From positions 1-53,453 of the forward strand of contig NZ_JASAOI010000087.1 in the NCBI RefSeq assembly GCF_029953285.1: a stretch of DNA of 53,453 nucleotides, given 5' to 3'. The number at the start of each line of letters is the position of its first letter. Within the stretch, counting starts at the first letter, position 1. The notes below the pieces were generated by a model that saw nothing but the letters and a program-made list of their open reading frames with translations, did no database searches and had not been told where the DNA came from. Origin of the DNA: Yinghuangia seranimata (GTDB lineage: Bacteria; Actinomycetota; Actinomycetes; Streptomycetales; Streptomycetaceae). A program made the translations under genes and the position numbers. Shown here one piece after another: positions 36,144 through 40,520 of the stretch.

Positions 36144-37199
36144 TCAGTGCTCCCAACTCGGGCCGGCCGGTGAGCCGAACCAGACGCATTGGCGGGCGCG
36201 GGCGCCGTTCGGGCGCACGGTCAGGCCGAAGCCCGACGACTCCGGGCGGCCGTGGTCGTACCACCAGCGGACGGCGTCGGCGTACTCCTGGACGAGAGCC
36301 TCGTCCCCGGCCGCGTTGGTCTCGACGCCGGCTCCGAAGCCGACGGACGCGTACCGGCCGTCGCGCTCCAGCGACAGCACCCGCTCACCGACGGCCGGGT
36401 CGTCGCCGCTGGTGCGATGTGTGACGCCGGGCAGGAGCAGGCCGATGACGAACTCGCCGAACCCGCCCAGCGGTCCGTCGAGTCGCGCCCAGTCGGGGCC
36501 GAGGGAGACAGGCTTGGTCTCGCCGCCGTCCGGCCATTCGTCCCACGCTCGCGACCGCTGAGACCGCATCACCATGAACGAGGCGACCTCACCGAACCGC
36601 CCCACAGCCTCGCCGTCGCGTACACGCAGGCTGACGACGCGCTCGGTGCTGAACGCGGGTCCCCAAGGCATCACGATCTTGCCGTCGAGACACTGTTCCA
36701 GCCAAGCCGAGGGCATGTGGCGGATCGCGCAGGTGACGTGGACGCGGTCGTACGGTCCGCTGGACGGCCGTCCGTCGAAGCCGTCCGCGCAGACGACGTC
36801 GACGTTCGGAACGCCGGTCGCGTCGAGGTTCCGGCGCGCCGACTCGGCGACGTCCGGGTCGACCTCCACCGTCACGACAGAACCCGTCGGGCCGACTCGG
36901 TCCGCCAGGAGCGCGGCGGTGTAGCCGGTGCCGGCGCCGATCTCCAGGACACGGTGTCCCGGGTGCACATCGCAGGCGTCGAGCATGGCCTTCACGACTG
37001 TGGGCATAGAGGCCGACGACGACGGGACGGCACCGGCCATCTGCGTTGTCACGGCCTCGTCCGACCGGGCCGCAGCCTGCCACGCCTCCAAGTCCCCCGC
37101 TCGCGTGATCCACTCGCCGTCGACGAACAACCTGCCGGGGAGGAACGGCGTGCGGTCCCTCCCCAGCAGACGTACGGACGCGTTGTCCGGCTCGGTCAC
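36144..37199 (-). CDS. PIMT-like (protein-L-isoaspartate O-methyltransferase-type) peptide methyltransferase
   Basis: 351 aa. SAM motif I VLEIGAGTGYTAALLA (84-99) and VVTVEVDPDV (108-117); the PIMT-like SSSASMPTVVKAMLD element (60-74) precedes motif I, and YDRVHVTCAIRHMP (150-163) matches the PIMT YDxIxVTA...IP region. An acidic C-terminal half (about 185-351) has no counterpart in housekeeping PIMT (about 210 aa); long versions of this kind modify RiPP precursors. The GTG start (37197-37199) overlaps the TGA of a 43-aa peptide gene. Inference: it methylates an Asp of that peptide, leading to aspartimide. It also resembles the methyltransferases of FxLD and ATP-grasp (graspetide) systems, but no dehydratase or ATP-grasp gene is present. 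Confidence 0.85.
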   Translation of the reverse strand: MTEPDNASVRLLGRDRTPFLPGRLFVDGEWITRAGDLEAWQAAARSDEAVTTQMAGAVPSSSASMPTVVKAMLDACDVHPGHRVLEIGAGTGYTAALLADRVGPTGSVVTVEVDPDVAESARRNLDATGVPNVDVVCADGFDGRPSSGPYDRVHVTCAIRHMPSAWLEQCLDGKIVMPWGPAFSTERVVSLRVRDGEAVGRFGEVASFMVMRSQRSRAWDEWPDGGETKPVSLGPDWARLDGPLGGFGEFVIGLLLPGVTHRTSGDDPAVGERVLSLERDGRYASVGFGAGVETNAAGDEALVQEYADAVRWWYDHGRPESSGFGLTVRPNGARARQCVWFGSPAGPSWEH

Positions 37200-37327
37200 T
37201 TGCCGTCCTTCTTGTCGCCCTTGGGCTTGCGGTGGTCGCCAGTGTTGCCACCGCCGATGGTGTTGGACTGGCCGTCGTTGGAATTGCCCTGCGTCGGCTG
37301 GTCGTTCGGCTTACCTCTGGTCCCCAT
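37196..37327 (-). CDS. 43-aa hydrophilic peptide, candidate RiPP precursor
   Basis: A short gene with ATG at 37325-37327 and AGGGAGAG 3-4 nt upstream; its TGA overlaps the methyltransferase GTG. The peptide is rich in Asn, Gly, Asp and Gln, has no hydrophobic core, no Cys, Ser-rich or FxLD leader, and ends in a Lys-rich tail (HRKPKGDKKDGK). Asp residues are 9, 18, 31, 38 and 41; Asp 18 and Asp 41 are each followed by Gly, the sequence most prone to aspartimide. A basic precursor next to an acidic PIMT-like enzyme fits the imiditide class. Coding is supported by the ribosome-binding site, overlap and position, not by homology. Confidence 0.65.
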   Translation of the reverse strand: MGTRGKPNDQPTQGNSNDGQSNTIGGGNTGDHRKPKGDKKDGK

Positions 37328-37514
37328 GACTCTCCCTTTTGCATCTCAGGCATCGGCAGAGCGGCCACCCGGAAAGCGAGACGGGCGTGGACAACGGATC
37401 GCGTGGGCGGATCACCCAAAGCCGTTCGCTGGACTCCTGACTTGCCGTGCCAGGTACATACGTCCGGATCGTCATACGACTCGCGCGTCGCCCTCGTACC
37501 TCGTCGTCCGCCAT
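37311..37514 (-). CDS. 67-aa small protein with a CxCxxC motif, upstream of the peptide gene
   Basis: ATG at 37512-37514 has an excellent GGGAGG site exactly 6 nt upstream (37521-37526). The product is basic, starts MADDEVRGRRASRM and ends WPLCRCLRCKRESHGDQR, with Cys 53, 55 and 58. Its stop overlaps the peptide gene start by 17 nt, so the three genes form one tight leftward unit. No family is recognised; it might be a leader, regulator, metal-binding partner or second peptide. Confidence 0.55.
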   Translation of the reverse strand: MADDEVRGRRASRMTIRTYVPGTASQESSERLWVIRPRDPLSTPVSLSGWPLCRCLRCKRESHGDQR

Positions 37515-37616
37515 TCTCCACCTCCCGAGTGACCGTTCCGCTACAGAGCGAACACCTCTCGACGTACGGTGGGAACGGCTGGAAATCCACCAGGCGGAAG
37601 CGGGGGACAGGCGATA

Positions 37617-38447
37617 ATGGTTGCTCCCAACGAACTCGACCCGTTCGCGTCGCTGTGGCACACGTTCGGCCACTACCTGCGGGAACGCCGCAACGACCTG
37701 GGATGGTCACAGGACGATCTGGGCACCAAGGTCCACGCAACCGGCACCACTGTTGGGTACTGGGAGGCCGCGAAACGGACACCTGACCCGAAGGTGGTCC
37801 CCATGCTGGACGAAGTGCTCCAGGCGCGAGGCATGTTGGTGATCCTCGACCACCACGCACGCGAGGCGCTCGCCAAGGTCACACCGAAGTGGTTCGAGGG
37901 ATTCAAGGCGGCCGAGGCGACGGCGACCCGGGAGCGCGAGTACTCACCACAGTCCATCCCGGGCCTGCTCCAGTGCGAGGCGTACGCGCGTTGCCAGTTC
38001 CAGCAGATGCGGGTACCGGACGAGGTGGTCGAGACATGGACGCGCGACCGCATGAAGCGGCAGGAGGTGCTGACTCGGACCGTAATGCCGCTCGACTACT
38101 GGGCCATCATCGACGAGGGCGCTTTCGGCCGCCTGATGGCACACCCTGACTTCGCCTCCTCGCAGCTCGCCCACATCGCCGGACTCTGCGAACTCCCCAA
38201 CGTCACGGTCGAGATCCTGCCGACATCTGCCGGACTCCACGCGTGTATGGACGGCGCCGTGCTCCTCCTGGACCTTGCCGACAGGGGAACATGTGCGTGG
38301 TTGGAGCCCATGGGCGGAGGACATCTGATCGCGGAACGGGCCCGGGTCGATCGTCTGGAACGCCGCTACGATCTGCTGCGTACGGAAACGTTGTCAGTTT
38401 CCGCGTCAATGAAGGTGATTCGCGAACTCTTGGAGAGCACTTCATGA
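37617..38447 (+). CDS. XRE-family regulator with DUF5753 C-terminal domain
   Basis: 276 aa. N-terminal HTH (about 15-70: FGHYLRERRNDLGWSQDDLG, then TTVGYWEAAKRTPD); the C-terminal two-thirds is the actinomycete DUF5753 sensor-like domain (EREYSPQSIPGLLQCEAYAR, then LPTSAGLHACMDGAVLLLDL). It is paired with DUF397 by an ATGA overlap, the standard arrangement in Streptomyces (BldB/WhiJ-type systems). It is divergent from the methyltransferase unit, sharing a ~100-bp promoter region, and may regulate it. Start ATG 37617 follows GGGGGA. Confidence 0.9.
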   Translation: MVAPNELDPFASLWHTFGHYLRERRNDLGWSQDDLGTKVHATGTTVGYWEAAKRTPDPKVVPMLDEVLQARGMLVILDHHAREALAKVTPKWFEGFKAAEATATREREYSPQSIPGLLQCEAYARCQFQQMRVPDEVVETWTRDRMKRQEVLTRTVMPLDYWAIIDEGAFGRLMAHPDFASSQLAHIAGLCELPNVTVEILPTSAGLHACMDGAVLLLDLADRGTCAWLEPMGGGHLIAERARVDRLERRYDLLRTETLSVSASMKVIRELLESTS

Positions 38448-38635
38448 CGAAGCACGACTGCGTTCCCCGATGGAAGAAGTCGAGCTACAGCGGCAACCAG
38501 GGCGGAGCCTGTCTCGAAACCGCAGCGTTGACACCGGCGGTAGGCGTCCGTGACTCGAAGGACCTGAACGTCGGACAGCTGATCATCGCCGCGTCCTCCT
38601 GGGCGTCGCTGACGGAGTCGATCAAGTCGCTCTGA
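38444..38635 (+). CDS. DUF397 protein
   Basis: 63 aa with the family pattern WKKSSYSGNQGGACLETA, then VGVRDSKD. DUF397 proteins accompany XRE-DUF5753 regulators in actinomycetes and are thought to modulate them or act as toxin partners. ATG overlaps the regulator stop. The left 290-bp inverted repeat starts 10 nt past its stop codon. Confidence 0.92.
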   Translation: MTKHDCVPRWKKSSYSGNQGGACLETAALTPAVGVRDSKDLNVGQLIIAASSWASLTESIKSL

Positions 38636-38645
38636 CCTGTGCCGA

Positions 38646-38935
38646 GGTTGGGCCGTTGCGCTGCGGCGTGGACTGCGCCTGTCTGCACCGTCCCTGACCT
38701 GCAACGCTGTTGGCGGCCTCCCGCCCCTCCCGCTTTTGGATTTTCGCGCGGCCGTCCCGCGCGTCAAGCCGCGGTGACCCTGACCCGACTCAGGTGGCCT
38801 GTCCCGGGGCGAAGGAGGCGGCTTGACCCGCGGGCCGTCCGCGCTAAAGACCTCGCACCTAGCGGGAGGGGCGGGGAGTGTGGCGCCGCTCCCTCGTTTC
38901 ACGCCGCTCGCCTGCGGCCCCAGCGCGGTCGCCGC
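38646..38935 (-). repeat. 290-bp inverted repeat, left copy (copy B)
   Basis: Matches the reverse complement of 40231-40520 over the full 290 bp with about ten mismatches by eye (roughly 97% identity). The central 156 bp (38720-38875) is itself an imperfect palindrome: outer C-rich/G-rich arms of 15 bp and inner arms of about 28 nt. The repeat ends 4 bp before the stop codon of the nuclease-like gene. Confidence 0.92.
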
Positions 38936-40230: not shown

Positions 40231-40520
40231 GCGGCGACCGCGCTGGGGCCGCAGGCGAGCGGCGCGGGGCGAGGGAGCGGCGCCACACTCCCCGCCCCTC
40301 CCGCTAGGTGCGAGGTCTTTAGCGCGGACGGCCCGCGGGTCAAGCCGCCTCCTTCGCCCCGGGACAGGCCATCTGAACCGGGTCAGGGTCACCGCGGCTT
40401 GACGCGCGGGACGGCCGCGCGAAAATCAAAAAGCGGGAGGGGCGGGAGGCCGCCAACAGCGTTGCAGGTCAGGGACGGTGCAGACAGGCGCAGTCCCCGC
40501 CGCAGCGCAACGGCCCAACC
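40231..40520 (+). repeat. 290-bp inverted repeat, right copy (copy C)
   Basis: Inverted partner of 38646-38935, same length. Its palindromic 156-bp core is 40291-40446. The core recurs, diverged, at 6-152, so this is a dispersed repeat family and not only a local duplication. No coding potential is evident. Confidence 0.92.

What the first reader, a model, noticed from the sequence alone, without database searches (positions are those of the whole stretch)
36144..37514. Candidate imiditide-type RiPP locus: 43-aa peptide coupled to a PIMT-like methyltransferase
Seen: a 43-aa Asn/Gly/Asp/Lys-rich peptide with its own ribosome-binding site whose stop codon overlaps the start of a long, acidic PIMT-like methyltransferase. 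Two Asp-Gly pairs (Asp 18 and Asp 41) are natural aspartimide sites. There is no LanB, ATP-grasp, YcaO, lanthipeptide or lasso gene nearby. Known: standalone PIMT-like enzymes make aspartimide in an otherwise unmodified peptide in the imiditide class (NmaA/NmaM of Nonomuraea, from memory). Inference: this is a member or relative of that class, with a precursor too short for routine gene calling.
Basis: partly seen in the sequence, partly recalled or inferred. Interest (0 to 1): 0.85.

Follow-up and report, generated by a model that had tools for sequence, protein, structure and literature searches.

The report
Aspartimide peptide operon in Yinghuangia
A soil bacterium carries a tiny, easily overlooked peptide gene overlapping the gene of an enzyme that probably turns one aspartate of the peptide into a reactive ring; this is a new member of a peptide class described in 2023, with unusual regulation and unusual close relatives.

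Summary
A 43-aa frame (37327-37196, minus strand) ends in a GTGA overlap with a 351-aa PIMT-like methyltransferase (37199-36144). Four loci in three other genomes have a homologous peptide with the same overlap. The peptide is constrained at amino-acid level; Asp9 and Asp18 are invariant in 5 of 5, Asp41 is not. The enzyme has the C-terminal domain and WxxxGxP motif of RiPP-associated PIMTs, and no other RiPP enzyme was seen among 12 proteins scanned around it. The imiditide (type I pamtide) reading is supported by sequence; the chemistry is untested. The review read counts 1,414 type I pamtides, so this is a new member of a known kind. Two additions matter more: (1) its nearest enzyme relatives outside its own precursor family serve four-cysteine, zinc-hairpin (type II) precursors, and one clade for all type II enzymes is rejected; (2) the operon is divergent to an XRE/DUF5753-DUF397 regulator pair across a conserved element, with an unnamed 67-aa protein as first gene; DUF5753 genes lie within 3 kb of 15 of 33 related methyltransferases in three genomes (0.79 expected).

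The parts
37196..37327 (-). precursor peptide gene, 43 aa
   Evidence: four homologues, dN<dS in 10 of 10 pairs, Asp9 and Asp18 invariant
36144..37199 (-). peptide L-aspartyl O-methyltransferase (PIMT/PAMT family), 351 aa, GTG start overlapping the peptide stop (GTGA)
   Evidence: Pfam PCMT; NCBIfam TIGR04188 below its cut-off; best fold match 1dl5
37332..37337 (-). AGGGAG ribosome-binding site of the peptide
   Evidence: sequence
37311..37514 (-). 67-aa small protein (SRMTIRxY...RPRDP...CxCxRC), first gene of the presumed operon; its end overlaps the peptide start by 17 nt
   Evidence: Homologues between XRE gene and methyltransferase in L051, L052, L053, and beside two XRE genes of the same genome; no Pfam family
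37529..37555 (.). conserved operator-like element GTRAC-N6-GYYAC-NN-AGMGAACAC between the divergent genes
   Evidence: Alignment A3 (5 of 6 rows keep it); pattern made from these loci found at 5 sites in 3 whole genomes, all between an XRE gene and this small protein, reversed-pattern control 0
37617..38447 (+). XRE-type regulator with DUF5753 (likely ATG 37617; searches used a reference starting one codon earlier)
   Evidence: Pfam DUF5753 144.6 bits, cut-off 23.4
38444..38635 (+). DUF397 small protein, ATGA overlap with the XRE gene
   Evidence: Pfam DUF397 59.5 bits, cut-off 24

Best explanation
This is a type I pamtide (imiditide) operon. Shown: a conserved precursor peptide gene overlapping the gene of a RiPP-type PIMT homologue, beside a divergent XRE/DUF397 pair with a conserved intergenic element. 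Inferred: the methyltransferase binds the basic part (HRKPK) of the linear peptide through its acidic C-terminal domain, methylates the side chain of Asp18, and the ester closes onto the Asp18-Gly19 backbone to an aspartimide (-18 Da), which persists or opens, mainly to isoaspartate. The XRE regulator, modulated by DUF397, probably binds the intergenic element and switches the small-protein/peptide/methyltransferase operon.
For: Homologous peptide before the methyltransferase in four loci of three other genomes; GTGA overlap in 5 of 5 and dN<dS in 10 of 10 pairs. Asp18 invariant in 5 of 5. In 21 other type I-like precursors, picked by hand, the last Asp before the terminal basic cluster stands 7-12 residues ahead of it, 10 residues in 13 of 21. 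WxxxGxP at W313-P319, kept in at least 90% of 10 aligned enzymes at its fixed positions. Best fold match 1dl5, the structure that Lee et al. place in the RiPP-associated clade. Enzyme nested among enzymes with type I precursors. 15 of 33 related methyltransferases in three genomes within 3 kb of a DUF5753 gene against 0.79 expected.
Against: No biochemistry. Proline is low for the class (3 of 43). Asp9 is as invariant as Asp18. The spacing from Asp18 to the basic cluster is 14, outside the 7-12 of the other precursors. The charge idea is not uniform: net charge of the five peptides is +3, -1, +3, +1, 0, and the C-terminal part of one close enzyme (L043) is +1. No protease or exporter is recognised among the neighbours scanned, so the end product is unknown.
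Confidence: 0.88

Rival explanations
1. The modified residue is Asp9 (or both), not Asp18.
For: Asn8-Asp9 is invariant in 5 of 5, and the Asp18 spacing to the basic cluster is unusual.
Against: The review says that the first 20 residues of NmaA can be removed with modification retained, and other type I precursors carry an Asp, mostly Asp-Gly, shortly before the basic cluster.
Confidence: 0.12
2. The peptide only couples translation, and the methyltransferase acts on another protein (general isoaspartate repair, or the adjacent regulator).
For: The peptide gene overlaps the enzyme gene; PCMT-family enzymes ring in 14 of 14 control genomes, mostly as repair enzymes by common knowledge.
Against: The strongest PCMT match of the genome is another gene, on C22 (144.8 bits against 105.8). 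Conserved residues and dN<dS in the peptide; RiPP-type C-terminal domain.
Confidence: 0.05
3. The locus is a toxin-antitoxin-like unit (XRE/DUF397) with a hitch-hiking peptide.
For: XRE/DUF397 pairs were proposed as type II TA systems (abstract of PMC10364602; passages of PMC7159879).
Against: The same abstract reports that none of fourteen pairs behaved as a TA system and that they act as regulators.
Confidence: 0.05

Closest known systems
Type I pamtides / imiditides (NmaA-NmaM of Nonomuraea maritima; SpaA-SpaM of Streptomyces sparsogenes)
   Same: Short, often unannotated precursor plus PIMT homologue with C-terminal domain and WxxxGxP, no other RiPP enzyme, basic C-terminal part, conserved Asp
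   Different: Own precursor family (TIGGGxTGxxRKxK), low proline, Asp to basic cluster 14 residues; extra small gene and divergent XRE/DUF397. NmaA and SpaA sequences were not seen, so no direct comparison was made.
Type II pamtides / cysimiditides
   Same: The enzymes before which four-cysteine precursors stand in Yinghuangia (L042 second gene, L045, L046, L051) are its nearest relatives outside its precursor family, 49-53% identical
   Different: The window peptide has no cysteine
Graspetide methyltransferases (TIGR04188)
   Same: Best NCBIfam match; graspetide groups 11 and 13 may co-occur with DUF397/DUF5753 (PMC13097080, passage)
   Different: 195.4 bits against a cut-off of 380; no ATP-grasp gene among the neighbours scanned
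XRE-DUF397 regulator pairs of Streptomyces
   Same: Domain make-up and gene order (abstract of PMC10364602)
   Different: Divergent to a pamtide operon, with a conserved intergenic element and a third small protein

Membership tests
Type I pamtide / imiditide | Two-gene cluster: precursor plus PIMT homologue, no primary enzyme of another RiPP class | tested here: met
   (12 proteins of 30.4-43.6 kb scanned)
Type I pamtide / imiditide | PIMT with extra C-terminal domain and WxxxGxP | tested here: met
   W313-P319; 1dl5 top fold match
Type I pamtide / imiditide | ~45-aa precursor rich in Gly, Pro, Asp (and Lys) | tested here: inconclusive
   43 aa; Gly 10, Lys 6, Asp 5, but Pro only 3 (7%; class mean 16.8% by Lee et al.)
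Type I pamtide / imiditide | Highly conserved Asp near conserved Gly/Pro, and conserved basic residues at the C-terminal end | tested here: met
   Asp18, R33, K34, K36 invariant in 5 of 5; residue 19 is Gly in 4 of 5
Type I pamtide / imiditide | Enzyme groups with enzymes of type I precursors | tested here: met
   but enzymes with type II precursors share its clade of eight
Type I pamtide / imiditide | Asp converted to aspartimide / isoAsp in the otherwise unmodified peptide | not testable with these tools
   needs mass spectrometry
Type II pamtide / cysimiditide | Two CxxCxGxG motifs around a conserved Asp | tested here: not met
   no Cys in the 43 aa
Graspetide (graspimiditide) | ATP-grasp ligase in the cluster | tested here: not met
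   TIGR04188 below cut-off
FxLD / class I lanthipeptide methyltransferase | Lan genes beside it; TIGR04364 over cut-off | tested here: not met
   151.9 bits against 320; no Lan gene among the proteins scanned

The most novel reading that the evidence does not exclude
Pamtides of this genus are cassettes: one methyltransferase lineage changed between linear and zinc-hairpin precursors, and precursor/enzyme pairs were plugged into, and out of, a standing XRE-DUF397-small-protein control module with its own operator, so the peptide works as the output (or signal) of that regulator.
Probability: 0.35. Interest if true: 0.65.

Novelty: new member of a known kind. Interest (0 to 1): 0.45.

Why it matters
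What aspartimide peptides do is open; the review read here asks for work on their bioactivity. A pamtide operon tied to a known kind of regulator across a defined intergenic element gives a handle on when it is made. The window enzyme and the hairpin-type enzymes of its clade (49-53% identical, other substrate type) are close natural material for finding what sets substrate choice.

Tried and rejected
Neighbour-gene clustering put first two large clusters that overlap the methyltransferase on the other strand or lie beside it, and was not used. The 67-aa small protein is not read as a pamtide gene proper: it was found at only 4 methyltransferase loci, and also beside two XRE genes of the own genome; at C98 no methyltransferase follows (no match), at C56 the contig ends about 560 bases downstream, so this cannot be told. 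The PADLOC match to mad2 covers about 97 residues of the SAM-binding region and is not read as defence. Domain swap as the cause of the type I/type II grouping was tested with separate N- and C-part trees: both keep the joint clade of eight (92/93 and 100/99), but neither alone resolves the two halves within it (the N part puts two of the four type I enzymes with the type II ones at 83/78; the C part leaves it open). Three positions separate the two sets of four enzymes (60, 61, 240); at 60-61 the type I outgroup carries the type II letters, so they do not mark substrate type.

Limits. The 3 kb was chosen after seeing the loci; 80 of 81 DUF5753 matches were entered (one short fragment dropped) with all 33 TIGR04188 matches at E <= 1e-20, which include other kinds of PIMT-like enzymes; neighbouring methyltransferases share regulators, so the probability printed there is not for independent events. 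One search used 99 rows of 128 methyltransferase frames (12 loci dropped by hand, others by E over 1e-60 or under 220 aa); three short type II rows left out there were put back, where they fill at most 12% of the C-part columns. Precursor labels were set by eye; 29 of the 99 rows were labelled as having none. Of the two AU tests the first group (type II) was defined by its precursors, the second (five TIGGG-type rows) after seeing the tree. The pattern was made from loci that it finds. The 21 precursors were picked by hand, out of 60 rows labelled other type I, largely for having a basic tail, so their spacing is no unbiased sample; the automatic rule picked Asp22 and Asp26 in two of the five family members where alignment A2 gives the Asp18 column.

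For the last reason the novel case went from 0.40 to 0.35.

Full report
What is there. On the minus strand a 43-aa frame (37327-37196) with an AGGGAG site ends in a GTGA overlap with a 351-aa methyltransferase (37199-36144). Upstream on the same strand a 67-aa frame (37514-37311) runs 17 nt into the peptide gene. On the other strand, divergent, lie an XRE/DUF5753 gene (37617-38447) and a DUF397 gene (38444-38635). To the left are genes of the cytochrome c biogenesis kind (thioredoxin-like, DsbD-type, ResB, Cytochrom_C_asm) and a 264-aa frame without Pfam match; to the right an AbiEi-like gene, an amidohydrolase and an IclR-type regulator. The genome (9.8 Mb, 113 contigs) is inferred to be of the genus Yinghuangia: one of two same-genus genomes has a contig of 284,399 bases with the match ending at base 230,772, and so has the Yinghuangia soli KLBMP 8922 record.

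The peptide is real. Homologous peptides stand before the methyltransferase homologues of L042 (75% identical enzyme), L043 (60%), L044 (60%) and L039 (48%), four loci in three other genomes. Sixteen columns are invariant in 5 of 5: M1 G2 N8 D9 G14 D18 S21 T23 G25 G26 G27 T29 G30 R33 K34 K36. All five stop in a GTGA that gives the enzyme's GTG; dN is below dS in 10 of 10 pairs, from 0.20/1.10 to 0.41/0.55. The window against its nearest relative gives 0.29/0.46, so constraint there is moderate.

Which aspartate. Asp9 and Asp18 are invariant; Asp31 and Asp38 are not kept, and Asp41 has an aligned Asp only in the nearest relative. In 21 other type I-like precursors picked by hand, the last Asp before the terminal basic cluster stands 7-12 residues ahead of it, 10 in 13 of 21; Asp18-Gly19 ahead of HRKPK is the like place here, though 14 residues ahead. 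Asp18 is preferred; Asp9 is kept as a rival.

The enzyme. PCMT domain at 61-189 and a C-terminal domain ending in WYDHGRP, the WxxxGxP motif that the 2026 review gives for RiPP-associated PIMTs (PMC13001092; abstract, the sections Imiditides and RiPP-Modifying PIMT Homologues, and passages read). The AlphaFold model (mean pLDDT 85.4) has 1dl5, the T. maritima enzyme, as best PDB match (356 alignment columns, 22% identity, TM 0.52 by query; the rmsd of 10 suggests that the two domains are set differently). In the sequence search of the PDB the 23 matches at E <= 1e-5 bear PIMT or other methyltransferase names, none named as a RiPP enzyme.

Tree. In a 99-row tree and a 41-row tree with bootstraps the window enzyme, three relatives with the TIGGG-type peptide and four Yinghuangia enzymes whose precursors carry two CxxCxGxG motifs with Asp-Gly between them form one clade of eight (100/99). 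Within it the two sets of four are sisters (97/93 and 96/85); the part trees keep the clade of eight but not this split. Enzymes with linear precursors (L039 and L047, then L048/L052 and L012/L013) branch below. The other type II enzymes found (L086, L096, two of L149) lie in a distant clade; one clade for all eight type II enzymes is in 0 of 200 bootstrap trees and is rejected. So hairpin precursors became paired with this enzyme family at least twice, or precursor genes moved between enzymes; one such event happened beside the window's lineage. L039 has the TIGGG peptide outside the joint clade, which makes a linear precursor the likelier older state there (inference). I saw no statement of this in the parts read of PMC10787088 (abstract, section 2.3, the start of 2.4, 2.5 and passages) and PMC13001092; searches for imiditide, pamtide and cysimiditide list 4, 2 and 4 papers, not all opened, and the imiditide paper of 2023 is not held, so priority is not claimed.

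Spread. Enzymes at E <= 1e-60 occur in 4 of 394 genomes of the family sample, three of them of this genus with the window's own, and at 1e-55 in 1 of 394 of the class sample, the own genome. One same-genus genome has ten matches at 1e-40.

Regulation. In the three genomes of the genus 15 of 33 TIGR04188 matches lie within 3 kb of a DUF5753 gene; 0.79 expected from uniform placement (limits in Tried and rejected). For graspetides such co-occurrence is in print (PMC13097080 and PMC8939145, passages); the words regulator and XRE were not found in the main text of PMC10787088, nor regulator, transcription and DUF397 in that of PMC13001092. The intergenic element GTRAC-N6-GYYAC-NN-AGMGAACAC is found 5 times in the three genomes, each time between an XRE gene and the small protein, one of them with 2 mismatches; 0 for the reversed pattern; none in the genome with ten enzymes. 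Three of the five sites have a pamtide enzyme downstream (the window's type I, and in Y. soli one type I and one type II), C98 has none, and at C56 the contig ends too soon to tell. A sixth copy of the module (Y. soli C12, L053) has the small protein and an enzyme but a diverged element. The nearest relative of the window pair (L042) lacks this arrangement: its XRE/DUF397 genes lie downstream. Module and pamtide genes therefore seem to combine freely (inference).

Verdict. The class has been known since 2023 and counted at 1,414 type I members (review), so this is a new member; the closeness to type II enzymes and the regulator module with its conserved element give it moderate interest.

Noticed in passing
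window 37514-37311 (-): 67-aa protein family SRMTIRxY...RDP...CxCxRC beside XRE/DUF397 pairs, no Pfam family; six copies at E <= 2e-4 in two genomes (one match runs over a TGA)
   Followed up: partly
window 38646-38935 and 40231-40520: 290-nt inverted repeat, 97% complementary, with an AbiEi-like gene between the arms
   Followed up: no
L042 (G001:C1:4876500-4887000): A type I and a type II pamtide gene pair about 3.4 kb apart, with an XRE and two DUF397 genes between them
   Followed up: partly
L055 (G000:C1:93500-104500): Second PAMT-like gene of the window's genome (41% identical); no precursor found before it
   Followed up: no
L050 (G001:C1:4115000-4128000), second methyltransferase: A TAA stop inside the profile match: possibly a decayed copy
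   Followed up: no
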